A DNA stretch of 64,000 bases from a virus. The position numbers and the translations under genes are program-made. The DNA is taken from positions 59,032 through 123,031 of IMG/VR virus record IMGVR_UViG_3300037606_000123; one strand, written 5' to 3'. Below the pieces are notes generated by a model that did no database searches, was not told the DNA's origin, and worked only from the letters and a program-made list of their open reading frames with translations. Below are positions 3,862-57,515 of this stretch, in pieces (position 1 is the first letter of the stretch; each line of letters opens with the position of its first letter).

Positions 3862-4617
3862 ATGATAACAAATATTAATGAGTTTAAAGTATACTTAAAT
3901 GAAAATGTTGATATGTCAACATTTTCAATCATACAAAGAAGTGATGGAATAATATCTAAATATGGTCAAGAAAATAATTTAGATATAGATGATTGTATTG
4001 AAAATTTAATATATTATAATATTATATCTGATAATTATACAGAAGACGAATTACGTATATTATTAAATAATTTAAAATTAAATCAAACACACACATTTGG
4101 TTCTAGATGGACACAAACAGAAGTCACAAAAACACATTCTAATGATACATTATTAGAAAATGTACGTATTCCACAAGAAGTTGAATTAAAGTTTGGTGTG
4201 AAGTATAAAAACATCAATTGGAATGATTTAAATCTTATTAATGTTGGTGTCTATGGTGATACTGTATTTTACGGTATTCAAATACCAGGGGAGAATAATA
4301 AATACAATAAAGGAATTATTGTTGATCTTAAAAATGAAGATGAATTAAATCGTATTGATATAATGATGGATTTTAATTTACAAGGTTTAGGATTAGGATA
4401 TAAAATTTATAAAAAAATTATAGAACAAACTGGACACATTTATTCATTATTTAATAAAAGAGTTAATGATGATGCTATTCCTAAAATTTGGGAAAAATTA
4501 AAAAACGATTCTGATATTGAAGTACATTCAAACAAAGATGGTGAAATAGCAATTTGGAAAAACATGAATGATAATGAATTAAAAAATAATTTAATTTCTA
4601 AAATAAATAACAAATAA
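3862..4617 (+). CDS. GNAT-like protein with candidate capsid-targeting leader
   Basis: The protein begins MITNINEFKVYLNE|N, the shared leader seen in several genes here and similar to the T4 internal-protein leader MKTYQEFIAE|A. Cleavage after LNE would fit the T4 gp21 rule (L/I)xE. The C-terminal third contains LQGLGLGYKIYKKI (about residues 173-186), which looks like the acetyl-CoA-binding motif A of GNAT acetyltransferases (Q/RxxGxG/A), with a preceding strand and a following helix. The acceptor is unknown. I infer an enzyme carried in the virion and injected. The leader match is clear and the GNAT call is moderate. It is the last gene before a terminator/tRNA region. Confidence 0.6.
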   Translation: MITNINEFKVYLNENVDMSTFSIIQRSDGIISKYGQENNLDIDDCIENLIYYNIISDNYTEDELRILLNNLKLNQTHTFGSRWTQTEVTKTHSNDTLLENVRIPQEVELKFGVKYKNINWNDLNLINVGVYGDTVFYGIQIPGENNKYNKGIIVDLKNEDELNRIDIMMDFNLQGLGLGYKIYKKIIEQTGHIYSLFNKRVNDDAIPKIWEKLKNDSDIEVHSNKDGEIAIWKNMNDNELKNNLISKINNK

Positions 4618-18633: not shown

Positions 18634-18990
18634 TTATTTAATCCAAATATCATTACTATCACCAAAATCATATAATGATTCTAAATAATCATTGAATAAA
18701 TCTGTAAAATTACCATCAAAACTATATTCTTGAAAAGTATCTTCTGGAATTGTACCATCTGCTAACTGTTTTAAAAAATCGAAATTATCAACAATTTCTT
18801 CTAATTCATATTTTACTGAATCATCTATTTTATTAATTAATCTTTTTAATTGATTAATTATAATATTACAAATTGTAATTACTTGTGCTTCATCATCAAA
18901 ATCTTCACCTCTCAAATGTTGTTTTATATCTAAATGGTATTTCCAATTTCTTTCATTAATTTGTCGAAATTCATTAATTGTTGTAATCAT
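18634..18990 (-). CDS. Small protein with candidate capsid-targeting leader
   Basis: It starts MITTINEFRQINE|R, the shared leader, with a possible gp21-type cleavage after INE at residue 13. The remaining 105 residues are acidic and helical with no recognised family. By analogy with T4 internal proteins IPI-IPIII, which are small, have a 10-residue leader and are injected, it may be an internal head protein. T4 IPs are mostly basic, whereas this is acidic. It lies between the degenerate Nudix and a hypothetical gene on the same strand. Confidence 0.6.
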   Translation of the reverse strand: MITTINEFRQINERNWKYHLDIKQHLRGEDFDDEAQVITICNIIINQLKRLINKIDDSVKYELEEIVDNFDFLKQLADGTIPEDTFQEYSFDGNFTDLFNDYLESLYDFGDSNDIWIK

Positions 18991-22790: not shown

Positions 22791-23036
22791 ATGAATATCG
22801 CTTCTATTAAAGATTATACAGAAAATTATTGGTACCGTGGATTTAAAAAAATGTATATTAAAGAATATTCAAATAACAAAATTTTATTTTCTAATAATGA
22901 TATTATAAAAATTGAAAATAGTGATATATATTTAAATAATAAATTAATATGTTCTGATCCAGATATAACAATAGAACAGTTCTTAGAATTATATAAATAT
23001 ATTTTAATAAAAAAAGGATATAAATTTACAGACTAA
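22791..23036 (+). CDS. Hypothetical protein (81 residues)
   Basis: A small soluble protein (MNIASIKDYTENYWYRG...) with no recognised domain. It opens a plus-strand operon after a TTTAATATATATAG promoter-like block (22772-22785). Its stop overlaps the ATG of the next gene (TAATGA), so the two are coupled and it may be functionally tied to the leader-bearing protein at 23036. Confidence 0.5.
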   Translation: MNIASIKDYTENYWYRGFKKMYIKEYSNNKILFSNNDIIKIENSDIYLNNKLICSDPDITIEQFLELYKYILIKKGYKFTD

Positions 23037-23419
23037 TGATAACTAATATAAATGAATTCAAAAAAAATAATAAAGAAGCAACATACGACAATTTAGCTGA
23101 TGATATTACTATTATAAATAAAGAAACATTAGAACCGATTAACTCCGACGAATATGAAATTGATCAAATAATAGATATTATTACAGATCAAGAAGAAATT
23201 AAAAAATTTGAAGGTGCATCAAATATTTCAAAAACAGATTTAACATATAAAACAGTTGATAGAAATGATATATTGTGGATTACTGTTATGTTAAAATCAC
23301 GTAATAACTCATCAGCATATCCGTTGGGAGAACTTGGGGTTGTTAAAGTGAAGGTTCTTCAAACATTTTATGGTTTAAATAAATTAAAACAATTAAAAAC
23401 AACAGATAAAATTTATTAA
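23036..23419 (+). CDS. Protein with candidate capsid-targeting leader (127 residues)
   Basis: It begins MITNINEFKKNNKE|A, with a possible protease site after NKE (less ideal than (L/I)xE). The following 113 residues are acidic and not recognised. There are no membrane segments or metal motifs. It is coupled to the small gene upstream and followed by the RuvC-like gene. It is treated as a candidate internal head protein. Confidence 0.55.
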   Translation: MITNINEFKKNNKEATYDNLADDITIINKETLEPINSDEYEIDQIIDIITDQEEIKKFEGASNISKTDLTYKTVDRNDILWITVMLKSRNNSSAYPLGELGVVKVKVLQTFYGLNKLKQLKTTDKIY

Positions 23420-23448: not shown

Positions 23449-24165
23449 ATGAATTATAATTATATTGGGATTGATACATCACTAAGTTCTACAGGCTTAT
23501 ACATTTGTTTAAAAGATGGTAGCGAACATTATTACAACTATCGTAATACCGATAAATTAACTAAATGGCATAAAATTTTAGATTTCATAAATTATTTTGA
23601 TTATCAAAATATTAAATTAGATAATTATTCTGATACAGAAATAGCAAAAATCATTCAATATAATAAAGTTACAGATCAAATGGTTACAGATATTTTAAAA
23701 CATTGCATACCACAAGAAACAAAAATAATAACAGAAGGGTATTCGTATTCTTCTTCAAATACATCATCATTAATTGATTTAATTTCTTATGCTACTTTAT
23801 TAAGAAATAAATTAATCCAATTAGATTTTAATGATTTTATAATTAAATCACCGTCAACATTAAAATTAGATTGTTGTAAATCAACATATATTCCAATAGA
23901 AAAAATTATTGGTGGAAAAAAACCAAGGATAGAATTAATTTACAGAAATGATGAAGGTATTGCAGGTGGTAAATTTACAAAACGTGAAATGTTAAAATCG
24001 ATATTTGATCACCCAAATGTTAATGTATATATACAAAAAATATTAGATTTTCACATTGTTGATCTACTAAAAATGAAAAACATACCGAAACCTATTGATG
24101 ATGTTGTTGATGCTGTTTGGTTAGCATGGACAGAAATATTAGTAAATGAAAACCTTATCAATTGA
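23449..24165 (+). CDS. RuvC-like Holliday-junction resolvase
   Basis: The RNase H/RuvC fold is visible: first strand YIGIDTSLSSTGL with catalytic Asp9, second acidic site IITEGYSYSSS with Glu96, and a C-terminal IDDVVDAVWLAW helix near residues 217-228 with the Asp pair. Such enzymes cut four-way junctions in recombination and packaging. T4 uses the unrelated endonuclease VII, so a RuvC-type enzyme would be a substitution. The 238-residue length is longer than bacterial RuvC. A terminator overlaps the final codons. It sits among candidate internal-protein genes. Confidence 0.75.
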   Translation: MNYNYIGIDTSLSSTGLYICLKDGSEHYYNYRNTDKLTKWHKILDFINYFDYQNIKLDNYSDTEIAKIIQYNKVTDQMVTDILKHCIPQETKIITEGYSYSSSNTSSLIDLISYATLLRNKLIQLDFNDFIIKSPSTLKLDCCKSTYIPIEKIIGGKKPRIELIYRNDEGIAGGKFTKREMLKSIFDHPNVNVYIQKILDFHIVDLLKMKNIPKPIDDVVDAVWLAWTEILVNENLIN

Positions 24166-24191: not shown

Positions 24192-25388
24192 ATGATTACA
24201 ACTATAAATGATTTTAAAAATATAAATGAAGCATCAAAAAAGAAAACTGATGGTTTTGATTTATTTATTATAGATACACAAAAAGAAAATAATAAAATGT
24301 TTAATGATGATAATTTAAAATCATTAAATAATTATAGTAAAGATTTTTCAAGAGTATTTCAATTATGGAATAGTACAAACACATCAAAACCAAGTTATGA
24401 ATTTAATAACCAAGTTAAATTTTATAGTACACAACAAGGTAGAAAATTATCATTAACAGATGTTTCATTATTATTTCATAAACCACAACAAGAAAATATT
24501 ATAAATAGAATTAAAAATATACCAGATGATTATGAAATGTTCGAAACAATTCATAATGAAATTTGGTTTTATTTAGGTTTTGATAAATGGTTTTTATTAA
24601 CAACAGAATTAGTTAAATTATTTAAAACATTTAAAAAACAAAACCGTAAAATTATTATTACAGGTGTAAAAAAATCATGTAATTTAATTTATCATATAAT
24701 GCGAAAAATGGAAATTGATGTAGAATATAATTTTGAATTTATTTTTGATGGTACACCAAGTGTATTAAAAGAATCTAAAAACATGTCAGGTGAAATTGAA
24801 TATATTAAAAATCATTTAGATCATAATCGAGGACAAGATGATTATCATATGGATATGGTATTAGATGATAATGTATTAGCATATGTTGATTATTCATTAT
24901 ATCGCGGTAAATTACATATTAAAATGATTGAAACTGTAATTAAAAATAAAGGTTATGGTTTAATGTTAATGAGAGAACTTGCAAAAGATTATGGTTATGA
25001 AAATATAGAACGAAATCAATTAACACCAGATGGAATGAAAATGCGTAAAAAATTAGATGATGAATTTAATTTTGATTATGAAAAACATATAAAAAATCAA
25101 AATAAACATATAAAAGCAGACGTAATTAAAGATATAAGAATAAAAAATTCTATAGTAGCAGATTTTTTAAGTGATATATTATTATTAGGTTCTGATGAAA
25201 CATGGAAAAAATGGTTGAAACGTTCAGATTATAATGATATAAATAATAAATTAGTATTAGATTTTAACTTAGATTTTAATGATATTAGTGATATATCTAC
25301 ATGGATTAAAAATTCACCGACTAATAACAATGATATATTACAAGATGTACCATATAATATTAAAAATGATTTAAATAAATTATTATGA
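24192..25388 (+). CDS. Large leader-bearing protein with GNAT-like domain
   Basis: It begins MITTINDFKNINE|ASKK, the closest match in the window to the T4 leader MKTYQEFIAE|AS, with an ideal INE|A cleavage site. Residues about 230-290 contain DNVLAYVDYSL followed by VIKNKGYGLMLMREL, which fits strand-turn-helix motif A of GNAT acetyltransferases. The N-terminal 200 residues and the C-terminal 100 are unassigned. I infer an enzyme packaged in the head and injected. The next gene overlaps by 4 bases (ATGA) and is also a leader-bearing GNAT, so the pair is probably made together. Confidence 0.6.
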   Translation: MITTINDFKNINEASKKKTDGFDLFIIDTQKENNKMFNDDNLKSLNNYSKDFSRVFQLWNSTNTSKPSYEFNNQVKFYSTQQGRKLSLTDVSLLFHKPQQENIINRIKNIPDDYEMFETIHNEIWFYLGFDKWFLLTTELVKLFKTFKKQNRKIIITGVKKSCNLIYHIMRKMEIDVEYNFEFIFDGTPSVLKESKNMSGEIEYIKNHLDHNRGQDDYHMDMVLDDNVLAYVDYSLYRGKLHIKMIETVIKNKGYGLMLMRELAKDYGYENIERNQLTPDGMKMRKKLDDEFNFDYEKHIKNQNKHIKADVIKDIRIKNSIVADFLSDILLLGSDETWKKWLKRSDYNDINNKLVLDFNLDFNDISDISTWIKNSPTNNNDILQDVPYNIKNDLNKLL

Positions 25389-25897
25389 TAACAAATATTT
25401 TAAATTTTAAAATATTTGAATCTGGTTTAAATAATGTTAAAATATATAATTCAGATGAATTTTATGAATACATTTCTACTAATGGACCACAAAAAACATT
25501 TGATCCTAGATTTTTACGTAAAAATGATGGTGGTAAAAAGGCATTTAAATATTACGAATATCAAGATTATAGTTCAATGTATGTAAATGTTGATAATACT
25601 ATATTTTTTGGAATATTTGAAAATGATATAATGGTTGGACTTTCAAGAATTTATTTAAATGATATAAATAAATCAAAAAATATTTGGTGGTTAACTTATT
25701 TATGTATTGATCCAATATATGAAGGTAAAGGATATGCTACACAATTAGCTGATTATATATTTAAATATTTTAAACAAAACAATTATACATTTGAAACATC
25801 TTCTTATACTGAACAAGGATTTATTAAATTAAAACCATTATTTAATCGTTTAGCATTAAAATATAATGTTACATTTATAGATAAAGAAAAATTCTAA
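25385..25897 (+). CDS. GNAT-family N-acetyltransferase with candidate capsid-targeting leader
   Basis: This is the clearest acetyltransferase in the window. Residues 103-125 read LTYLCIDPIYEGKGYATQLADY, a canonical beta4 / motif A (V-x-P-x-x-x-G-x-G-x-A) that binds acetyl-CoA. It starts MITNILNFKIFE|SG, the shared leader with a possible protease site after IFE. The 170-residue length is one GNAT domain plus the leader. The acceptor is unknown; in T4 the analogous leader directs the Alt ADP-ribosyltransferase, which modifies host RNA polymerase, into the capsid. It is coupled by ATGA to the gene at 24192. Confidence 0.75.
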   Translation: MITNILNFKIFESGLNNVKIYNSDEFYEYISTNGPQKTFDPRFLRKNDGGKKAFKYYEYQDYSSMYVNVDNTIFFGIFENDIMVGLSRIYLNDINKSKNIWWLTYLCIDPIYEGKGYATQLADYIFKYFKQNNYTFETSSYTEQGFIKLKPLFNRLALKYNVTFIDKEKF

Positions 25898-27076: not shown

Positions 27077-28462
27077 TTATTGATTTATTTGTTTATTAAA
27101 TTTTTTAGAACGAATTCCAACTAATTCACCAGATAAATATCTTGGATCATCTTTATCAATTCTATATACGATACCATTACAATCTTTAGTGACAATTTTA
27201 TTTTTTGCAATTCCAACTAATTCACCAGATAAAAATCTTGGATCGTTTATATCTACTTGAAAATTATTTTCATCTTTATCTTTAACAATAATTTTATTTT
27301 TTGCAATTCCAACTAATTCACCAGATAAGTATCTTGGATCATCTTTATCAATTCTATCTACAATACCATTACAATCTTTAACTGAAACTTTACCGGTAGC
27401 AATTCCAACTAATTCACCAGATAAAAATCTTGGATCGTTTACATCTACTTGAAAATTATTTCCATCTTTATCTTTAACAACAACTTTATTTTTAGTAAAT
27501 GTAATTAATTCACCATTTTTAAATCTTTCATCATTTTTATCAACATGATATATATTTCCATCTTTATCTTTCACACCTATTTTATTTTTTGAAAAACAAT
27601 AAAAATTATCAGTTTTATAAAATGGATCATCTTTATCAACATAATATATATTACCATCAATATCTTTAATATTCATTTTACCTGTTGATACCGCAACTAG
27701 TTCACCAGATAAATATCTTGGATCTGTTATATCTACTTGATAAAATTTACCATCTTTATCTTTTACAGAAATTTTACCTACAGTAATTGGAATTAATTCA
27801 CCAGATAAATATCTTGGATCTGTTATATCTACTTGATAATTGTTTCCATATTTATCTTTAACTTGAACTTTACCTACAGCAATTGGAATTAATTCTCCAG
27901 ATAAATATCTTGGATTTGTTATATCTACCTGTAATGTATTTCCGTCTTTATCTTTTACGACAACTTTATCAGTCATAATAAACTTTAATTCTCCAGATAA
28001 ATATCTTGGATCTGTTATATCTACTTGACAATTATTTCCATCTTTGTCTTTTACAGTTACTTTATCAGTAGCAATAAATTTTAATTCACCAGATAAATAT
28101 CTTGGATCTATTTTATCAATAAAATAATTATTTCCAATGTTATCTTTAACTATAACTTTACCCTTATTATTAATAGTTCCACCTAATATAATATTATATG
28201 TATCTTTTCTTAAAACAAAGTCATCATTTACTAATTCTAGTTCTTTATTTAACATATCTATTTTATTATCAAAAATATGTAATATTTCTTTTTTAAAATT
28301 TTCTTTTCCGTGTTTTTTAATAGATAATTTTAATTTTTTACCACTACCCAGATAATTATCATTTATATTATCTGTTATATGACATCCAATATAAATTTTA
28401 TTATTAATTAGATTTATTGTTTGATAAATTATATATTTTAACTCGTTTTGTGTATTGTTCAT
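27077..28462 (-). CDS. GIY-YIG homing endonuclease with 11 tandem 32-residue repeats
   Basis: The N-terminal 100 residues form a GIY-YIG nuclease of the phage Seg type: YIIYQTINLINNKIYIG (residues 10-26), then NYLGSGKKLKLSIKKHG and E-rich helices. From residue 102 to 453 there are 11 tandem repeats of 32 residues with consensus KVxVKDKDGN...QVDxxDPRYLSGELVGI, probably DNA-binding units. The ATG at 28462 is chosen; an upstream extension would run through the duplicated gp32 tail. The gene is antiparallel to gp32 and flanked by two copies of the gp32 3' end, a classical sign of a homing insertion. Confidence 0.85.
   Translation of the reverse strand: MNNTQNELKYIIYQTINLINNKIYIGCHITDNINDNYLGSGKKLKLSIKKHGKENFKKEILHIFDNKIDMLNKELELVNDDFVLRKDTYNIILGGTINNKGKVIVKDNIGNNYFIDKIDPRYLSGELKFIATDKVTVKDKDGNNCQVDITDPRYLSGELKFIMTDKVVVKDKDGNTLQVDITNPRYLSGELIPIAVGKVQVKDKYGNNYQVDITDPRYLSGELIPITVGKISVKDKDGKFYQVDITDPRYLSGELVAVSTGKMNIKDIDGNIYYVDKDDPFYKTDNFYCFSKNKIGVKDKDGNIYHVDKNDERFKNGELITFTKNKVVVKDKDGNNFQVDVNDPRFLSGELVGIATGKVSVKDCNGIVDRIDKDDPRYLSGELVGIAKNKIIVKDKDENNFQVDINDPRFLSGELVGIAKNKIVTKDCNGIVYRIDKDDPRYLSGELVGIRSKKFNKQINQ
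27104..28159 (-). repeat. Eleven 96-bp tandem repeats in the endonuclease gene
   Basis: Eleven consecutive 32-codon units; DPRYLSGEL or DPRFLSGEL is visible in nine, while units 6 and 7 are diverged. The last four alternate between two types (DKDGNNFQVD and DCNGIVYRID), suggesting duplication of a two-unit block. Confidence 0.9.
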
Positions 28463-28485
28463 AATATATATATTAATAATAAAAA

Positions 28486-28530
28486 GTGAAAAAAGCTGCA
28501 GCATTTTTTGAAGACGAAGACGAAGATTAA
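28486..28530 (+). pseudogene. Orphan copy of the gp32 3' end
   Basis: Fifteen codons reading VKKAAAFFEDEDED-stop align codon for codon with the last 15 codons of gp32 (KKKAAAFFFDSEED-stop, 26963-27007). It has no upstream gene body. A terminator follows, as expected behind an original gp32 gene. It is probably the remnant of the pre-insertion gp32 end. Confidence 0.8.
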
Positions 28531-28557
28531 TTTTCACAGTTTTTTTTTTTTTTTTTT

Positions 28558-36563: not shown

Positions 36564-36944
36564 TTAATTACTAATCCATTTTTTACCATTCCAATATGAC
36601 CAATCAACATTACCTGGAACCCATTCCATATCAATTTCAATATTTAATTTATCAATATTATCATATTTTTTTACTACTGTATTAATAATCCAATCATTTA
36701 ATGCTTTTATATCAAAAGGATTTGAATCACCTAAAACTATTGCAAGTTTTAATTCTTTTTTATTATAATAAGTGTTTCCATATTCACCATTACACATTAA
36801 ATGTAATGCTTCCGCAAATTTTTGTAATCGTTTCATATCAATAATGCTATCAAAAGTAATAATATTATTTTCATTAATAGAATCTATTGATTCATAATGT
36901 GTTATTTTTTTATTATTTTTAAATTTATTAATAGTTGTTATCAT
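36564..36944 (-). CDS. Protein with candidate capsid-targeting leader (126 residues)
   Basis: It begins MITTINKFKNNKKITHYE|S. The leader matches the shared motif; the best (L/I)xE-like site is less clear than in other members (THYE|S, or INE at about residue 25). The rest (residues 40-126) includes LAIVLGDSNPFDIKALNDWI and a Trp-rich C-terminus (EWVPGNVDWSYWNGKKW). No family is recognised. It lies 4 bases after the deoxyribosyltransferase-Nudix gene on the same strand. Confidence 0.55.
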   Translation of the reverse strand: MITTINKFKNNKKITHYESIDSINENNIITFDSIIDMKRLQKFAEALHLMCNGEYGNTYYNKKELKLAIVLGDSNPFDIKALNDWIINTVVKKYDNIDKLNIEIDMEWVPGNVDWSYWNGKKWISN

Positions 36945-43017: not shown

Positions 43018-43422
43018 ATGATAACAACTATAAACGATTTTAGAAATAAAATAAATGAAAACATTGAGGAGCTTAATTCTAACAAAGAAGTTAAATTAAA
43101 AGCATATCAAGAAATTATAAAAAATTATAATTCACGTAAAGAAAGTTTAAAAAACATATTCAGTAAATCTCAAGATAAATGGGAAGAAGAAGCTGAAAAA
43201 ATAATAGAGGGAAATGTATATTTAGGTTTATTTTGGAAATTAACTAAATTAACTAAAATTATTAATGATGATGAAGAAAAATTAAAAAATAGTGAATTAA
43301 CAGATATAGAAAAGAAAGAAATTCAAACTAGAATTAATGATAATAAGAAAAAATTATCTGATGATCAGAATGAACTTAATAAACAGATACGTGAAGACCT
43401 ATCTGACATACAAAGATTATAA
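43018..43422 (+). CDS. Coiled-coil protein with candidate capsid-targeting leader
   Basis: It begins MITTINDFRNKINE|N, with the leader and an INE|N cleavage candidate. The remaining 120 residues are almost entirely helical and charged (KKEIQTRINDNKKKLSDDQNELNK), a long coiled coil. By analogy with T4 internal or scaffold-core proteins it may occupy the prohead core. It starts 3 bases after the 630-residue protein and ends in a terminator. Confidence 0.6.
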   Translation: MITTINDFRNKINENIEELNSNKEVKLKAYQEIIKNYNSRKESLKNIFSKSQDKWEEEAEKIIEGNVYLGLFWKLTKLTKIINDDEEKLKNSELTDIEKKEIQTRINDNKKKLSDDQNELNKQIREDLSDIQRL

Positions 43423-47997: not shown

Positions 47998-49104
47998 ATG
48001 GATAATAATAATAAAATAATTAAAAAATGGAAACCAATAGTATCTACTATAGTGTTATCAGAAAATGTATCTATTGATAATATCAATGTAGAAAATATAT
48101 GTATTTTAATTGAATCACTAGCTATAAACGCAATTGATAATTCACTTAATGATAATAATTTTTTACCTAATTTATTATTATCTATTATTAGATTATATAA
48201 AACTGATGTTAAATTTACAATTAGTAATACAAATATAACTACACCAGAAACATATACATTAATGTTAATAGATGATATTGTAAAAGGAACATTACAAATA
48301 GATTTAGATTTAGCTTTGACTCAAGTATTTCAACAACATTCATACAATGTTTCTATAAATAATATTACATTTATTAATAATCAAATTATATTAAAATGTA
48401 CACCAAACACAACAAAAAAGAAATTTATTATACCAACAAATACATTATGCCCAATTAAGGCAGAACAAGAAATTGCTATGTTAATTGCAGATTATAAAGA
48501 TAATATAGCATTTGACAATACAACAGGCTTAATATATAATGACGGTTCCAAAGATTTACTACATTCAAATGAATATTGGTTTGCTGATTCTGGTGATAGT
48601 AAAACAATTAATAACGTAACACCGTTACCTAACTTTCAAGAGTGTTCACATTTAGAAATAGAGGATGTTTTTAACACATCTGAGAACACTTTAAAAGATT
48701 TATATAATCTACAGAAGGATATACAAGAAAATGTATATGGTTACGATTTTAATAAATTACAATCTGGTCCATTACCGGAGTTAAGACAATTTTGGGATTG
48801 GAATTATCATGCAATTCAAGACGAATTAAGAGAAGCATTTACAGCATTAGGTGGAATGTCTGATGGTATATCTAATGGTGTTTGGAAACCATGGAAAAAA
48901 TCATATACAGAACAAGCACCAAATATGACATATAATGATATGTCTGAACGTGATAAAAAAGAATTAAAAATGGAATTAATTGATATTCAACATTTTTTAT
49001 TCAATATCATGCTATCAGTCGGAATGACAGAACAAGAATTAATGAATTTTTATTTTGCAAAAAATCAAGAAAACCGCCGAAGAAATGCTAGTGGTACTTA
49101 TTAA
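47998..49104 (+). CDS. Chimeric gene: portal-derived segment plus all-alpha dUTPase/MazG-like domain
   Basis: There are three parts. Residues 1-141: unknown, opening KIIKKWKPIV like the start of the major capsid protein here (AITKWKPIV). Residues 142-200: FIIPTNTLCPIKAEQEIAML... is nearly the same as portal residues 282-340 (46 of 59 identical by hand count, with strong DNA similarity), so a piece of the portal gene was copied into this gene. Residues about 230-368: LYNLQKDIQENVYG, WNYHAIQDELREAFTALGG, WKPWKK and KKELKMELIDIQHFLFNIML form an all-alpha NTP pyrophosphatase (dimeric dUTPase / T4 gp56 dCTPase class) with EExxE/ExxD-type metal motifs. The enzyme part is probably active in dUTP removal; the portal segment is unexplained. 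Confidence 0.8.
   Translation: MDNNNKIIKKWKPIVSTIVLSENVSIDNINVENICILIESLAINAIDNSLNDNNFLPNLLLSIIRLYKTDVKFTISNTNITTPETYTLMLIDDIVKGTLQIDLDLALTQVFQQHSYNVSINNITFINNQIILKCTPNTTKKKFIIPTNTLCPIKAEQEIAMLIADYKDNIAFDNTTGLIYNDGSKDLLHSNEYWFADSGDSKTINNVTPLPNFQECSHLEIEDVFNTSENTLKDLYNLQKDIQENVYGYDFNKLQSGPLPELRQFWDWNYHAIQDELREAFTALGGMSDGISNGVWKPWKKSYTEQAPNMTYNDMSERDKKELKMELIDIQHFLFNIMLSVGMTEQELMNFYFAKNQENRRRNASGTY
48421..48597 (+). repeat. Portal-gene segment copied into the dUTPase gene
   Basis: About 177 bases encoding 59 residues match portal gene positions 56496-56672 on the minus strand. The longest shared coding stretch runs AEQEIAMLIADYKDN. Both DNA and protein agree, so the duplication is fairly recent. 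Confidence 0.85.
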
Positions 49105-51166: not shown

Positions 51167-52918
51167 TTAGAATAAAATACCAGAAGCATCTTCAACTTTG
51201 ATAGCCATGTATTGTTTCTCGGGAAAAAACCCAAATTCAGATACAGCATAACGAGAGTACATGTACAATCTTGGTGCCATAGTTTTTTCTGATGTAATTT
51301 CAACAGATTCAGCTAACATGTAAGCTAAGAATTTAATTCCTGGCTCTTCTTTAGTTCCAACACGACCCATATAGATTGTTAAATCTGCTGGAGACATAAA
51401 AGGATCAACATATAATTTGATACCATCAATAACACCTGCTGGTTGTAATTGTCCTGGGATTGCCATTTTAGCATCGAAAGGATTAATTGTATAACTTTGG
51501 ATTCCTTTTAATGTACCTGCTAATGTACCAGATGTTACTACATAATCAATTCCACCGATACGACCATCTGTTGCTACGAAGTAAGATGCTTGAACAACTT
51601 TTGACCATAATTTACGTGCCATTGAAGCATTGTGTTCACCACCTAATGCACCAGCTGTTGCAGTAACTGACATATCATAAATACGACCGTCTGTAATACC
51701 ACCAACTGTTAATCCAGTTTGCATTGCTGCTGGAGCTGCTGGAGCTTGTAATCTATTTTTCAAACCCATTTCTTTAATTTTTTCAACAATTTCTACAGAA
51801 ATTTTAGTTGAAATTTGATTAATTAATTGAGCTTTAGTTTTTTCTACAACATCAACGCCGTACATTCTTTTCCAATCACCTATTTCAGATAATCTTAATG
51901 CTGCTGATACGTGAGCAACACCGATTTCTACTGATTTAGTAAATGAGTTTGGTCCTAATTTACCAGCTTCAGCTGTGTCCCATTCACCTCTAGTTAAAGT
52001 TCCTGGTTTACCACCTGTTGTGAAATCATCAATGAAATCTTCACCTGCTGAAATTAATAATACTGTATCAACTGGAACAGCTGTAAAATCAGTAGCTGAT
52101 GTTAATGTCTCATCAATTTGTGATGCTGTTAAATGTGCTAAAATACTTAAAGCTGCTGGAAATGTGTTTAATGCTGGTGAAAAAGACCAAGCACCTGACG
52201 ACGCAGAATTTTGTTGAATATAAGCACGGAACATTGGCATACCATCAAGACGTGAAAATCCTTTGAATTGTACCCATCCTTCTTTAGATGCTGTTGGAGC
52301 AACTGTTGAATCATAAGCAGCTACTGCTGTTACGACACCTGATGGTGCTGTAAATCCAGATAAGTGAAAATATAAAGATTTAGAAAGTCTACCTCTTAAT
52401 TCAGTTGTACCAGTTGCAGCCATTTCAGCACGTAAAAACGTTTTTAATGACGTAAAGTCTGCTTCATCTGTTGGACGAAATTTAAATGATGAACTTCTTT
52501 CATCATTATCAAATCCGTTAGTATCATCATAATTCCATTCGAAATATAATAAATCAACACGATTTGAATTTACGTTAATTGTTGGTACTAACTCTAAACC
52601 TGGAGTGTTAGCTGCGATTTTTAAAGATGCTGGTAACAATGTTTGACCTAAATCTCCTGAACCTGCTCCACCTGGTAAACCTGGTACTTGTGATAAAGTT
52701 GGAAAACTAACAGCACCCATTCCTGCAGAATTTGCTGGATTTGCGTAAGCTACATTTTCATTTACCATACCGCTTGTTATTGCGCTTGAATGCATTTCTG
52801 CATACTCGCATAATTCGTTAATACGAGCTATATCAGTTACTCCTAATTTCTCCACGATTGGTTTCCATTTAGTAATTGCTTTTGTCATATCAACTGTTAA
52901 TTGTGAATTACGTTGCAT
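51167..52918 (-). CDS. Major capsid protein (gp23-like)
   Basis: It forms the hexamers of the head. The N-terminal AITKWKPIVEKLGV resembles T4 gp23 LLNKWKPLLEGEGL. A propeptide site is likely near SGMVNE|NVAYANP (about residue 54), as T4 gp23 is trimmed by gp21. The long Gly/Ala/Thr-rich body includes AAALRLSEIGDWKRMYGV-like and NQISTKISVEIVEKIKEMGLKN-like segments typical of gp23 and a C-terminal KYMAIKVEDASGILF-type strand. At 583 residues it is slightly longer than T4 gp23 (521). Its codons are visibly richer in G+C than those of its neighbours, as expected for a very highly expressed gene. Regulatory elements lie at 52945 and 53105. Confidence 0.9.
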   Translation of the reverse strand: MQRNSQLTVDMTKAITKWKPIVEKLGVTDIARINELCEYAEMHSSAITSGMVNENVAYANPANSAGMGAVSFPTLSQVPGLPGGAGSGDLGQTLLPASLKIAANTPGLELVPTINVNSNRVDLLYFEWNYDDTNGFDNDERSSSFKFRPTDEADFTSLKTFLRAEMAATGTTELRGRLSKSLYFHLSGFTAPSGVVTAVAAYDSTVAPTASKEGWVQFKGFSRLDGMPMFRAYIQQNSASSGAWSFSPALNTFPAALSILAHLTASQIDETLTSATDFTAVPVDTVLLISAGEDFIDDFTTGGKPGTLTRGEWDTAEAGKLGPNSFTKSVEIGVAHVSAALRLSEIGDWKRMYGVDVVEKTKAQLINQISTKISVEIVEKIKEMGLKNRLQAPAAPAAMQTGLTVGGITDGRIYDMSVTATAGALGGEHNASMARKLWSKVVQASYFVATDGRIGGIDYVVTSGTLAGTLKGIQSYTINPFDAKMAIPGQLQPAGVIDGIKLYVDPFMSPADLTIYMGRVGTKEEPGIKFLAYMLAESVEITSEKTMAPRLYMYSRYAVSEFGFFPEKQYMAIKVEDASGILF

Positions 52919-53260: not shown

Positions 53261-55726
53261 TTATTTTGTATTTAAATTATTAAAGTTTGTTAAAAAAGCA
53301 TTAATATATTCATCACTTAATACTGTTGAATCTTCACTATTAAAAGATTCTTTTATCATTGTAGCATTTGAACCTGTAACAGATTTTGCAAACGGTCTAG
53401 TTGCCCAGAAGTTTTTCATATCTGCAGATGTTGATAAAGAAAAATACTTAGATTCTGTAATTACAGAAACTTTTTGATTTTGATCTAAACTATTCCATGC
53501 TTCTTTAATATTTTCTGGTACATTAGATATTAATTTATCTTCATAACTAACTTTTGTATCATTTAATGTTTTACCAATGATATTTAATACATCAGATGTA
53601 TTATAATATTCACTTTCATCTAAAGCTACAACAACTGCATCTTGTTTATCTTTACTAAAAGATTTAAAATCTGCTATTTGTTGTTCTGATAAAAACGACA
53701 TAAAATGTGGTTGTTGATTAGCTAATATTTTTTGTCGTTTAATTTCTGCTAAAACATCATTAACTGTTTCAGTTAAATTTTCTTCAACATTCATAACTTC
53801 ATATTTATCATGTTCTAATTCAACAGTTTCATCTGTACCTGATTTTTGAATAATAACTTTATTATCTGGTGTAATTTCAATAATAATTCCAGTATCATCT
53901 GAATCTAATATTTTTACTAATGATGATAATAATGATGTTTCCATTGATGTATCAATTGTTCCATCTAATGTAACTGGTGATTCTGCTTCAATTGTATCAT
54001 CAGATAAATTAATATCAGTTAATGCTGTTGTATCAATTACATTATCATTAGGAACAGGAATAGGAATTATGTTTTCCATATCTACAGTATCTACAACTGT
54101 AGATAATTCGTCTGTATCTAATAATTCTTCAGTTTGATCCATTTCTTCTTCTTCAGTAGCATCCATTATTTCTTCTTCAGTAGCATCCATTATTTCTTCT
54201 TCAGTAGCATCCATTATTTCTTCTTCAGTTTCTTCATCATTCATAATTTCTTCTGTAACATTATTAATAATATCTTTTTCTTCGATAACACCTAAATATT
54301 CTTCAATATCAGATAAATTATGAATAGTTTCAATATCAGTATTAACATTTTCTAAAATTGGTGTATTAACTTTTAAAGTATTAACTAAATTTTTACTATA
54401 ACCAACAACTCCATCAAGTTTTTCTGAAATATAATCTAAAAAGACTTGGTCTTTATATGATTCATTAGCAACATATTCTATAAATTTTTGAGCTATTTCA
54501 GTTTCTTTTGCTGTACTTTCTGCAAATTTTTGAGCTATTTCAGTTTCTTTTGCTGTATTATCTAAAAAATCCTGTGTAACTTTTATTTCAGACTCTACGT
54601 CCTTAGCAAATTGTTCTGCAAACATTTGTGTAATTTCAGTTTCTTTTGCAACATATTGTAAAAAATCTGAATTGTTAGATAAATCTTCATTCATTTTAAA
54701 CACATTAGTGCTTAAATCTTCTGTCATTAAAATATTAGCTTTTGCGTGTTCTGCAACATATTCAATCATTTTTTCATCAATAGATAATCTTGATTCTATT
54801 TCAATTGATTGTTCGTTTAATTTTTTAAATACAGATGCTAAGTGATTAGAATATAATACAGATTCATTTAATTCTGTAACTAATGTTGTATTAGCTGTTT
54901 TTAAATTTTTATTTTCTTTAACTAAATAGTTTATTTTAGTTTTAAAAGTTTCTAAATATAATTTAACAGCTACTAATTCGTCATTAACTAAATCATACTT
55001 TTCAGATATAGCTAAAATATCAGTTGGATTAAATTTTCCTGTTTTAATTTTTTCTGTTAATTGATATTCCAATTTAGCCATTTCTGTAGCTAAAAGTTTT
55101 TTCATATATTTTAAATCCATTTCTGTTTTGTTGTCGTTTTTATTATCAATGTGTAAATTATTTACATCACCGTCTTTCATTTCATAAATTCTATAATGAG
55201 TATCTTCATTGGTTTTTAATCCAAAACTTTCATTAACACTTACATTCGATGTAGCAAATCCAGGATCTAAAACAATATCGTATGTAAATAACTCTTTTAA
55301 CATAACCCCACCATTTGCATCAGTTACACCAGCAGCACGAGAAGAAACAAATAATGGATAACCATCATTTATTATAGCTTTCGCTTCTTTACCCCAATGT
55401 GTTGATAACAACGCAATAGTTCCATCAATTCTATTTGATTCTTCATTATGAACTAAAGACTCAATAGCATGTGATGCGTTTTTACCAGCAATATCAAATA
55501 CATCTGGATGATCAAATTCACCGTAAATAACGCCAAGCATTTTTTTCTTTTCTAATAAATTATTCATTATAGGAAGGAAATTTGCTGCATTATAAAAACG
55601 TTTATTGCGATTTTCTATATCAAATTCAGTAAAGTTACCACTTAATAAAATTTTAGATGAGTTGTTTACTGATTCATTAAGTTTTAATGATTCAATTTGT
55701 TTCTCAACAATTAATACATTTTTCAT
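53261..55726 (-). CDS. Prohead protease fused to scaffold (gp21-gp22-like)
   Basis: The N-terminal 180 residues form a gp21-type serine protease: GEFDHPD with His73, a second His in ASHAIES and the nucleophile in FVSSRAAG (Ser128/129). This protease would process capsid, scaffold and internal proteins after (L/I)xE. Residues 200-821 are helical, coiled-coil and highly acidic, as in a scaffold core (T4 gp22/gp68). They contain AKETEIAQKF repeats near 385-420 and four E-E-E-I-M-D-A-T repeats near 500-530. In T4 protease and scaffold are separate genes; here they are one 821-residue protein. A TATAAATA (55759-55766, minus strand) lies 33 bases upstream. Confidence 0.85.
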   Translation of the reverse strand: MKNVLIVEKQIESLKLNESVNNSSKILLSGNFTEFDIENRNKRFYNAANFLPIMNNLLEKKKMLGVIYGEFDHPDVFDIAGKNASHAIESLVHNEESNRIDGTIALLSTHWGKEAKAIINDGYPLFVSSRAAGVTDANGGVMLKELFTYDIVLDPGFATSNVSVNESFGLKTNEDTHYRIYEMKDGDVNNLHIDNKNDNKTEMDLKYMKKLLATEMAKLEYQLTEKIKTGKFNPTDILAISEKYDLVNDELVAVKLYLETFKTKINYLVKENKNLKTANTTLVTELNESVLYSNHLASVFKKLNEQSIEIESRLSIDEKMIEYVAEHAKANILMTEDLSTNVFKMNEDLSNNSDFLQYVAKETEITQMFAEQFAKDVESEIKVTQDFLDNTAKETEIAQKFAESTAKETEIAQKFIEYVANESYKDQVFLDYISEKLDGVVGYSKNLVNTLKVNTPILENVNTDIETIHNLSDIEEYLGVIEEKDIINNVTEEIMNDEETEEEIMDATEEEIMDATEEEIMDATEEEEMDQTEELLDTDELSTVVDTVDMENIIPIPVPNDNVIDTTALTDINLSDDTIEAESPVTLDGTIDTSMETSLLSSLVKILDSDDTGIIIEITPDNKVIIQKSGTDETVELEHDKYEVMNVEENLTETVNDVLAEIKRQKILANQQPHFMSFLSEQQIADFKSFSKDKQDAVVVALDESEYYNTSDVLNIIGKTLNDTKVSYEDKLISNVPENIKEAWNSLDQNQKVSVITESKYFSLSTSADMKNFWATRPFAKSVTGSNATMIKESFNSEDSTVLSDEYINAFLTNFNNLNTK
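54139..54230 (-). repeat. 24-base tandem repeats in the scaffold region
   Basis: About four copies of a 24-base unit coding for ATEEEIMD; they extend an acidic, probably disordered segment of the scaffold. Confidence 0.85.
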
Positions 55727-55784: not shown

Positions 55785-57515
55785 TTACTCTGGATTATCT
55801 TCTACCGGTGTTTCATCAATTGCTTCTTCACCACCACCATCGTCAATTACTTCTTCTTCACCACCACCATCATCAGATAATTCTTCACCACCACCAAAAT
55901 CTGTAGGATCACTATCATCACCACCAAGATCATCACCACCACCTCCGTCGCCACTTGTAGAACCTCCATCTTTATCTTCAGCCCAGTATTTATCATTTTC
56001 TGCTAAAAATTCATCATCAAATTCCATTATATGTTTAGCTATCATTTTCCAGTGTAATAAAGGTCTTTCAGTTTCACCACTACCTACAGTTAAATTGTTT
56101 TTAAGGTCCGCTGCAATAGAAGACATAGCTTGCATATTTGATAATGCTTTAGCTTTTATTAATTCCGAATGTCCATAATATTTTAAATCTAAATCATTAT
56201 ATAATCTGTTATCATTTTCCAATTCAGGAAATTCTAATAACAATTGTATAATAATTGGTTTTAATAATACATCTTTAAATAATGCACGTAGTCTTTCTAT
56301 ATATTGTTGAAAATTATAATCATCATGTGTTAAATCTGAACCAACACTATAAATATTTCCACCACCAATTGAATTATCTAATCTTGATAAAGGAAATTTA
56401 CTTGTTCTTTTTAACGCATTATTAAACCAAATTAACATTGAATTTTCATTTAAATCATGACCACCTGGTTCAACTATATTCATTTCTGGTTTATTATCAC
56501 CAGGATTAGGAAACCAATATTCTTTTGAATATGGTAAATCTTTAGAACCATCAATATAAATTAAACCAGTTGTATCGTCAAATGCTACATTATCTTTATA
56601 ATCTGCAATTAACATAGCAATTTCTTGTTCTGCCATAATTGGAGATAATCCATTTGTTGGTATAATGAATTCTTTATGCATTGTAGCATTAATTAAATTA
56701 AATAACAATCTTGCTCTTTCAATTGATTTTAATTCGTTATATGGTCTAATTAACGGTTCAACATATGATGTTTCCATATAACTAGATGATCCTGAATATG
56801 AAACATAAATAACTTCTGCATCTAATAAGATTCTTCTATTTTGTTCATCATATGGATGTTGTACCCAAATTTTTAAACCTGATTGTTCATCTACTATAGG
56901 TATAATAGATATAGGATCTAATTTTTGAAACCCTATTATATTTTTTCCTTTTTTATCATAAATAATTTCTCGAGTTATATATCCTTCAACTAACCAATCT
57001 CTAGCCATATCCCAAGCCATAGTACCTTCTGTAAATCCACTATAAGCATAAATATTTTCAAAAACATTTTTAGCTTTATTACGAATAACTTCCGAATACG
57101 TATTAGGTAAATCTACTAATTCACACCATTTTTTATCTTTACCATAAACAATAATTTCATTTGTCATTTTAGAAACATAATCACGTATTTCAACTTTTGT
57201 AGCATACTCTTTAAGTATCATTATTTTTGATAAATAGCCTTCTGATAATGCAGCTATTGATTGTTTTTCTTGCATTAATGCATGAGCTTTTCTTGAAAAC
57301 ATTGAATAGCTATATCCATTTGTATCTGTAATCATATTTAGATCTTCATTTGCATGAATACCTTTTGCATTTTGTACAGCATTCTCTAAATAATTTCTAC
57401 CAAACAATGATAGTTTTGCTAATCTATTATTAAAATAAGTACCATTATTACCAATATTATCTAACATTGATGAATTTATATTTTGACTTCTATATGGATT
57501 ATAACCGTTATTCAT
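55785..57515 (-). CDS. Portal protein (gp20-like)
   Basis: It forms the dodecameric portal through which DNA is packaged. Typical gp20 features are present: an N-terminal helical region, MAWDMARDWLVEGYITREIIYD (cut: residues 168-186), FQKLDPISIIPI, the ERARLLFNLINATMHKEF helix, SRLDNSIGGGNIYS and QYIERLRALFKDVLLKPI. The last 60 residues are Gly/Asp/Glu-rich and probably disordered. At 576 residues it is close to T4 gp20 (524). Residues 282-340 are duplicated inside the dUTPase-like gene at 47998. It is in the usual portal-protease-capsid order on the minus strand. Confidence 0.9.
   Translation of the reverse strand: MNNGYNPYRSQNINSSMLDNIGNNGTYFNNRLAKLSLFGRNYLENAVQNAKGIHANEDLNMITDTNGYSYSMFSRKAHALMQEKQSIAALSEGYLSKIMILKEYATKVEIRDYVSKMTNEIIVYGKDKKWCELVDLPNTYSEVIRNKAKNVFENIYAYSGFTEGTMAWDMARDWLVEGYITREIIYDKKGKNIIGFQKLDPISIIPIVDEQSGLKIWVQHPYDEQNRRILLDAEVIYVSYSGSSSYMETSYVEPLIRPYNELKSIERARLLFNLINATMHKEFIIPTNGLSPIMAEQEIAMLIADYKDNVAFDDTTGLIYIDGSKDLPYSKEYWFPNPGDNKPEMNIVEPGGHDLNENSMLIWFNNALKRTSKFPLSRLDNSIGGGNIYSVGSDLTHDDYNFQQYIERLRALFKDVLLKPIIIQLLLEFPELENDNRLYNDLDLKYYGHSELIKAKALSNMQAMSSIAADLKNNLTVGSGETERPLLHWKMIAKHIMEFDDEFLAENDKYWAEDKDGGSTSGDGGGGDDLGGDDSDPTDFGGGEELSDDGGGEEEVIDDGGGEEAIDETPVEDNPE

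What the first reader, a model, noticed from the sequence alone, without database searches (positions are those of the whole stretch)
24192..25897. Tandem leader-bearing GNAT acetyltransferases (third possible copy at 3862)
25385 has a canonical GNAT motif (VxP-like IDP...GKGYATQLADY); 24192 and 3862 have weaker ones (KNKGYGLMLMREL, QGLGLGYKIYKKI). All three carry the candidate capsid leader. T4 packages the ADP-ribosyltransferase Alt to modify host RNA polymerase at once after injection; here acetylation may play the same part. This would be a new class of injected host-modifying enzyme.
Basis: inference. Interest (0 to 1): 0.75.

Follow-up and report, generated by a model that had tools for sequence, protein, structure and literature searches.

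The report
Tagged acetyltransferases in a huge phage
A fragment of a very large bacterial virus encodes three unrelated acetyltransferase-type proteins that share a virus-specific start sequence resembling the tag phage T4 uses to load proteins into its head, so they are probably carried in the particle and injected to modify host or defence proteins, although no virion or enzyme test has been done.

Summary
The window belongs to a 123-kb fragment of a T4-like huge phage; its capsid protein and prohead protease are closest to the 634-735-kb "huge phages". All three proteins are GNATs, but from three different GNAT groups, not copies: 25385 by Pfam; 24192 by homology to a GNAT family found in polyvalent and head-linked phage proteins, with anti-CRISPR AcrVA5 its nearest solved match; 3862 by an AlphaFold model whose listed PDB matches are nearly all acetyltransferase folds.

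The leader is real: MIT[TNSK]I..[FY] starts 10 of 139 ORFs and occurs at 0 of 666 internal methionines. It is private to this phage. Relatives use other leaders, and homologues of 3862 carry the leader type of their own phage. Most leaders can be read as ending in the L/I-x-E motif cut by T4 gp21. Packaging and injection are therefore likely, but inferred.

Two parts of the first interpretation fail or go untested. Injected phage GNATs were already predicted (polyvalent proteins, 2017; jumbo phages, 2021), and nothing points to RNA polymerase as the target. Counter-defence or translation targets are at least as likely. Verdict: a new variant of a known kind.

The parts
24192..25388 (+). Leader-bearing two-domain GNAT protein, 398 aa
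   Evidence: ORF; leader; N-domain and GNAT-domain homology
24192..24230 (+). Candidate capsid-targeting leader MITTINDFKNINE|A (13 aa), I-N-E site
   Evidence: T4 comparison PMC9026906
24240..24761 (+). N-domain (residues ~17-190) shared with leader-bearing ~200-aa stand-alone proteins of LR756501, LR756502 and LR745206; D-x-Q and one Cys invariant, isochorismatase-like by eye only
24792..25091 (+). GNAT domain (residues ~201-300) of the polyvalent/AcrVA5-like group, NKGYG loop
25385..25897 (+). Leader-bearing GNAT acetyltransferase, 170 aa; its start overlaps the stop of 24192 (ATGA)
   Evidence: PF00583 E 6.1e-8, 33.4 bits; overlap
25385..25420 (+). Candidate capsid-targeting leader MITNILNFKIFE|S (12 aa), I-F-E site
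3862..4617 (+). Leader-bearing GNAT-fold protein, 251 aa; family found behind other phages' own leaders
3862..3903 (+). Candidate capsid-targeting leader MITNINEFKVYLNE|N (14 aa), L-N-E site
4186..4578 (+). GNAT-fold domain (residues ~109-239), QGLGLG acetyl-CoA-loop-like motif
   Evidence: AF2 model m827b07f2f505; glycines invariant in A3/A5
18634..18990 (-). Leader-bearing 118-aa protein (MITTINEFRQINE|R), phrog_6318, unknown function
23036..23419 (+). Leader-bearing 127-aa protein (MITNINEFKKNNKE|A)
36564..36944 (-). Leader-bearing 126-aa protein (MITTINKFKNNKK...)
43018..43422 (+). Leader-bearing 134-aa protein (MITTINDFRNKINE|N)
53261..55726 (-). Prohead protease (821 aa, probably fused to scaffold), the presumed leader-cleaving enzyme; its own N-terminus contains L-N-E|S (residues 16-18)
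   Evidence: phrog_207 E 1.1e-23; tblastn
51167..52918 (-). Major capsid protein, used to place the phage
   Evidence: phrog_138 E 8.8e-8; 39% identity over 99% to LR756502

Best explanation
The three ORFs are GNAT-type acetyltransferases of separate origin recruited behind one phage-specific N-terminal tag. The tag works like the T4 capsid targeting sequence: it docks the protein in the prohead core, the gp21-like prohead protease (53261-55726) usually removes it after an L/I-x-E site, and the mature enzyme is packed with the DNA and enters the cell at infection. There it acetylates host proteins before phage gene expression can supply new enzyme. The best-supported target class is host defence or translation-type proteins (nearest solved match of 24192: anti-CRISPR AcrVA5, then RimI-type enzymes), not specifically RNA polymerase. 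Shown by computation: GNAT domains, the leader and its statistics, lineage-specific leaders, domain company. Inferred: docking, cleavage, packaging, injection, catalysis. Guessed: the target.
For: GNAT domains: 25385; 24192; 3862. Leader: 10/139 N-termini vs 0/666 internal Met; codons vary at wobble positions among the ten, so selection acts on the peptide; L/I-x-E at residues 9-18 in 6/10 leader proteins vs 12/129 others, P 3e-4. Lineage-specific leaders: MITxI..[FY] 11 times in this record and 0-4 times in relatives several times longer; MK.[hyd]K.[FY]..[FY] 34, 39 and 27 times in three huge-phage relatives, 0 here, reversed control 0-2; Mxx[L/F]I[K/R]...E 12 and 5 times in two IMG/VR contigs, 0 here. 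Leader exchange: three LR756504 homologues of 3862 carry the MK..F type, and most IMG/VR homologues carry a short N-terminus ending [LIV]-x-E (e.g. MKKFIKNLLTE|A) in contigs that use that type. The N-domain of 24192 follows a leader in three huge phages. Leader-bearing GNATs in LR756501 and LR756502. Packaged-effector company: L025 joins a virion-structural-protein domain, ParB and GNAT; Tunturi_5 gp273 joins NUDIX, ART-PolyVal and GNAT beside a minor head protein; L024 follows terminase- and portal-like genes (identified by eye); L051 joins ART-PolyVal to the 3862-type domain. T4 CTS facts from PMC9026906.
Against: No virion proteome or cleavage data exist for this phage or its nearest relatives. 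Four of the ten leader proteins lack L/I-x-E at residues 9-18. The cultured relative PTm1 shows no MK.[hyd]K-type leader signal above control and none is evident in the annotated genes of its first 50 kb. None of the three GNAT genes lies in the head-gene cluster of this record. 25385 and 24192 depart from the usual Q/R at the first position of the acetyl-CoA loop (E and K). The only model of 24192 was unusable (pLDDT 39). No target was tested.
Confidence: 0.6

Rival explanations
1. The leader loads the proteins into the prohead core, but they act there (core assembly, head size, DNA condensation, acetylation of virion proteins) and are not host-directed effectors.
For: Same packaging evidence. 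Some T4 core proteins have purely structural roles (PMC9026906).
Against: GNAT relatives sit with ART-PolyVal, NUDIX and ParB domains typical of injected conflict proteins. Three different GNAT groups behind one tag, and patchy presence between relatives, suit effectors better than structural parts.
Confidence: 0.15
2. As in the best explanation, but the specific target is host RNA polymerase, as with T4 Alt.
For: Precedents: T4 Alt modifies host RNA polymerase (PMC9026906) and the phage GNAT Rac triggers RNAP alpha cleavage (PMC7552054); PMC7824862 predicts Rac-like roles for jumbo-phage GNATs.
Against: No link to Rac was tested or seen; the nearest solved matches are AcrVA5 and RimI (24192) and PanZ, RimL and RimI folds (3862).
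Confidence: 0.1
3. The shared N-terminus is not a packaging signal but another sorting or expression feature, e.g. docking to a replication compartment or membrane, or a translation-start element; the GNATs are ordinary cytoplasmic phage enzymes.
For: 24192 and 25385 lie among replication-type genes (RuvC-like resolvase, gp32-like SSB) rather than in the head-gene cluster; packaging untested.
Against: Wobble positions vary among the ten leaders, against a DNA or RNA element. Layout and L/I-x-E excess match the T4 CTS. T4-type head genes are present. Related domains occur with virion-protein domains or beside head genes.
Confidence: 0.12

Closest known systems
T4 internal proteins and Alt with capsid targeting sequences (PMC9026906, PMC3012670)
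   Same: Short N-terminal tag shared by otherwise unrelated proteins, key hydrophobic/aromatic positions three apart, L/I-x-E site, T4-type prohead protease, MCP and portal in the genome.
   Different: Different, lineage-specific tag sequence and 12-14 rather than 10 residues; cargo is GNAT, not ADP-ribosyltransferase or restriction inhibitor; packaging not demonstrated.
GNAT domains of phage polyvalent proteins (Iyer et al. 2017, PMC5512222)
   Same: The GNAT domain of 24192 is homologous to GNAT domains in multidomain phage proteins with ART-PolyVal/NUDIX (Tunturi_5 gp273) or ParB plus a virion-protein domain (L025); predicted to be injected and to modify proteins.
   Different: Here the GNATs are short, separate proteins with a T4-like leader; 3862 and 25385 belong to other GNAT groups.
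AcrVA5 / AcrVA5Bsp anti-CRISPR acetyltransferases (PMC11021501, PMC10799925)
   Same: Best sequence-profile match of the 24192 family in the PDB (6IUF, E 5e-6, over the acetyl-CoA-loop region); minimal GNAT; AcrVA5Bsp comes from Bacteroidota phages.
   Different: AcrVA5 is encoded in prophage regions and not known to be packaged; match covers 38 residues; no anti-CRISPR activity tested here.
Rac, GNAT of phiKMV-like phages (PMC7552054)
   Same: Phage GNAT acting in host takeover.
   Different: Not known to be packaged; triggers RNAP alpha cleavage; no relationship beyond the fold shown here.
GNATs of jumbo phages surveyed by Iyer et al. 2021 (PMC7824862)
   Same: Stand-alone GNATs in jumbo phages predicted to modify host proteins.
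   Different: The passages read there do not mention an N-terminal packaging tag on such GNATs.

Membership tests
GNAT superfamily | GNAT sequence profile or fold | tested here: met
   25385: PF00583 33.4 bits against cut-off 20.7. 24192: homologous family with PF00583 hits. 3862: AF2 model, GNAT topology, nearly all listed PDB matches acetyltransferase folds.
GNAT superfamily | Q/R-x-x-G-x-G/A acetyl-CoA loop | tested here: inconclusive
   Canonical in 3862 (QGLGLG, the glycines invariant in A3/A5). 24192 (KNKGYG) and 25385 (EGKGYA) keep the G-x-G/A but replace Q/R.
GNAT superfamily | acetyl-CoA-dependent acetyl transfer | not testable with these tools
   No assay.
T4-type capsid targeting sequence (CTS) | short N-terminal tag shared by unrelated proteins of one phage | tested here: met
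   10/139 starts vs 0/666 internal Met.
T4-type capsid targeting sequence (CTS) | L/I-x-E prohead-protease site at the end of the tag | tested here: inconclusive
   Clear enrichment (6/10 vs 12/129, P 3e-4), but four leaders lack it at residues 9-18; actual cleavage untested.
T4-type capsid targeting sequence (CTS) | gp21-type prohead protease and T4-type head in the same phage | tested here: met
   Protease, MCP, portal.
T4-type capsid targeting sequence (CTS) | tag-dependent packaging and release on infection | not testable with these tools
   Needs virion mass spectrometry or reporter packaging.
Phage polyvalent proteins | two or more effector domains in one large polypeptide | tested here: not met
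   25385 has one recognised domain; 3862 one recognised domain plus an uncharacterised N-terminal region; 24192 has an uncharacterised N-domain plus GNAT in 398 aa. They may work like, but are not filed as, polyvalent proteins.
AcrVA5 anti-CRISPR | inhibition of Cas12a by acetylation | not testable with these tools
   Only a profile match to 6IUF.
Rac-like RNAP modifiers | RNAP alpha modification/cleavage | not tested
   No Rac sequence was compared.

The most novel reading that the evidence does not exclude
Huge T4-like phages pack tens of different proteins, each phage family with its own interchangeable capsid address tag; acetyltransferases of several origins are recurrent cargo that acetylate host defence or translation proteins at the moment of DNA entry.
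Probability: 0.4. Interest if true: 0.8.

Novelty: new variant of a known kind. Interest (0 to 1): 0.55.

Why it matters
If right, a simple N-terminal pattern reads out the injected cargo of huge phages directly from sequence, including uncultured ones, turning dozens of unknown proteins into testable candidate early effectors. It would also extend T4-style injected host modification from ADP-ribosylation to acetylation, with a counter-defence role as a concrete first test.

Tried and rejected
Single-sequence AF2 of 24192: pLDDT 39, not used. The search for related loci with each protein alone gave no relatives; profiles were needed. The idea that the three are paralogues: rejected, families do not align, although A5 vs A2 shows a faint local match (E 0.007, probability 5%). 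A DNA- or RNA-level start element: rejected because wobble positions vary. T4 late-promoter TATAAATA upstream of leader genes: 3/10 vs 21/129, not informative. A position-matrix search for leaders in LR756501 drifted to unrelated starts, so only fixed patterns are used for counts. ART-PolyVal in this record and the huge relatives: none found. PTm1 as a cultured carrier of the same leader: no signal above control. Promoter and terminator scans: chance level. Open-access papers holding 'capsid targeting sequence', 'acetyltransferase' and 'phage' together: none.

Full report
What the window is. The window is bases 59032-123031 of a 123-kb virus record. It holds a T4-type major capsid protein (51167-52918), prohead protease (53261-55726) and portal (55785-57515). 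The capsid protein is 38-39% identical over 99-100% of its length to the uncultured 634-735-kb phages LR756501-504 and LR745206, and less so to Lak phages of Prevotella and to phages of Tenacibaculum, Chryseobacterium and Flavobacterium; the protease agrees. The record is therefore probably a fragment of a huge, probably Bacteroidota-infecting, T4-like phage (inference).

The observation. The ORFs are real. 25385 is a GNAT by Pfam. 24192 and 3862 have no direct hit. For 24192, residues ~201-300 match proteins in a fecal phage contig and in Tunturiibacter phage Tunturi_5, a protein encoded right after terminase- and portal-like genes (L024, pairwise E 3e-17) and a 522-aa protein of a 517-kb phage (L025, E 1e-9). 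Three of five members of this family hit PF00583 (best 9e-11), and the profile's best PDB match is 6IUF (E 5e-6), which PMC11021501 identifies as AcrVA5. For 3862, three homologues were found in LR756504 and a profile scan gave 22 IMG/VR loci. AlphaFold with 17 rows gave pLDDT around 90 or more over most of residues 121-250; nearly all listed PDB matches are acetyltransferase folds (PanZ Z 8.6, RimL 7.8, RimI 7.2, SpeG), and the best viral match is an annotated NAT_SF protein (TM 0.82 by target length). Z values are moderate, but the rows agree. The three are separate GNAT groups, so 'copies' is wrong.

The leader. The pattern MIT[TNSK]I..[FY] begins 10 of 139 ORFs in the record, against 0 of 666 internal methionines (P 1.8e-8), and shuffled sequence gives 0.2 expected six-frame hits against 11. 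Codons differ at wobble positions among the ten, so the peptide is what is kept. L/I-x-E, the motif cut by T4 gp21 (PMC9026906), occurs at residues 9-18 in 6 of 10 leader proteins and 12 of 129 others (P 3e-4); the N-terminus of the protease itself contains LNE|S. In T4 the first 10 residues of IPIII suffice for packaging, with positions 4 and 7 mainly for targeting and 8 and 10 for processing; the hydrophobic pair I5 and F8 here has the same spacing.

Lineage-specific leaders. Fixed DNA patterns give a near-exclusive pattern of use: this phage's leader 11 times here and 0-4 times elsewhere; MK.[hyd]K.[FY]..[FY] 34, 39 and 27 times in LR756504, LR756502 and LR745206, once in LR756501 and never here, with reversed-pattern controls of 0-2; and Mxx[L/F]I[K/R]...E 12 and 5 times in IMG/VR contigs G007 and G002, with 0-2 in the huge relatives and none here. 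The same cargo sits behind different leaders: 3862-type GNATs carry MK..F leaders in LR756504 and MKKFIK..L.E-type leaders in the IMG/VR group, and the N-domain of 24192 follows MK-type leaders in three huge phages. This is what an exchangeable address tag read by each phage's own core or protease would produce. It is the strongest new evidence here, though it does not show where the address leads.

Company kept. L025 joins an N-terminal phrog_13138 (virion structural protein, E 1e-27), a ParB domain and the GNAT. Tunturi_5 gp273 joins NUDIX, ART-PolyVal and GNAT and lies beside a minor head protein. L051 joins ART-PolyVal to the 3862-type domain. Leader-bearing GNATs with clear Pfam hits exist in LR756501 and LR756502; the same phages and their relatives also hold GNATs without a leader, so the tag is selective.

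Mechanism. The best reading is T4-like: tag-directed loading into the prohead core, cleavage by the prohead protease, release into the cell with the DNA, and acetylation of host proteins before phage genes are expressed. Domain identity, leader statistics and leader exchange are computed; loading, cleavage, injection and catalysis are inferred; the target is unknown. AcrVA5 and RimI being nearest to 24192 makes defence or translation proteins at least as plausible as RNA polymerase, for which there is only precedent (Alt, Rac).

Novelty. Iyer et al. predicted injected GNATs in polyvalent proteins (PMC5512222) and Rac-like roles for jumbo-phage GNATs (PMC7824862). What appears new is small separate GNATs of several origins behind a phage-private CTS-like tag in huge T4-like phages; no open-access paper joined these terms, which does not prove absence. 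Hence 'new variant of a known kind'.

Noticed in passing
LR756504, LR756502, LR745206 (records of L006-L008): Each of these 634-642-kb phages has 27-39 start matches to one leader pattern, suggesting tens of tagged proteins per phage.
   Followed up: partly
24240-24761: N-domain of 24192 is shared with leader-bearing ~200-aa proteins of huge phages; invariant D-x-Q and Cys look isochorismatase/nicotinamidase-like by eye, but Pfam and PDB searches found nothing significant.
   Followed up: partly
27077-28537 (-): GIY-YIG-like start (by eye) followed by about ten 96-bp (32-aa) tandem repeats, consensus like VKDKDGN..VDI.DPRYLSGEL.
   Followed up: no
record 18849-18896 (-), outside the window: Leader-only mini ORF MITNINEFKMRYMKII, possibly a decayed leader gene.
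   Followed up: no
47998-49104: ORF matching both an NTP pyrophosphohydrolase (MazG-like) PHROG and, weakly, a portal PHROG.
   Followed up: no
L040, L042-L046, L048, L050, L053: 3862-type GNAT gene sits antisense to its conserved neighbours near a RuvC-like gene; in the window 24192 also lies next to a RuvC-like gene (23449-24165).
   Followed up: no
L027 3764-4976 (-), LR756504: Four tandem ~100-aa paralogous genes next to the 529-aa leader-bearing GNAT-fold gene.
   Followed up: no
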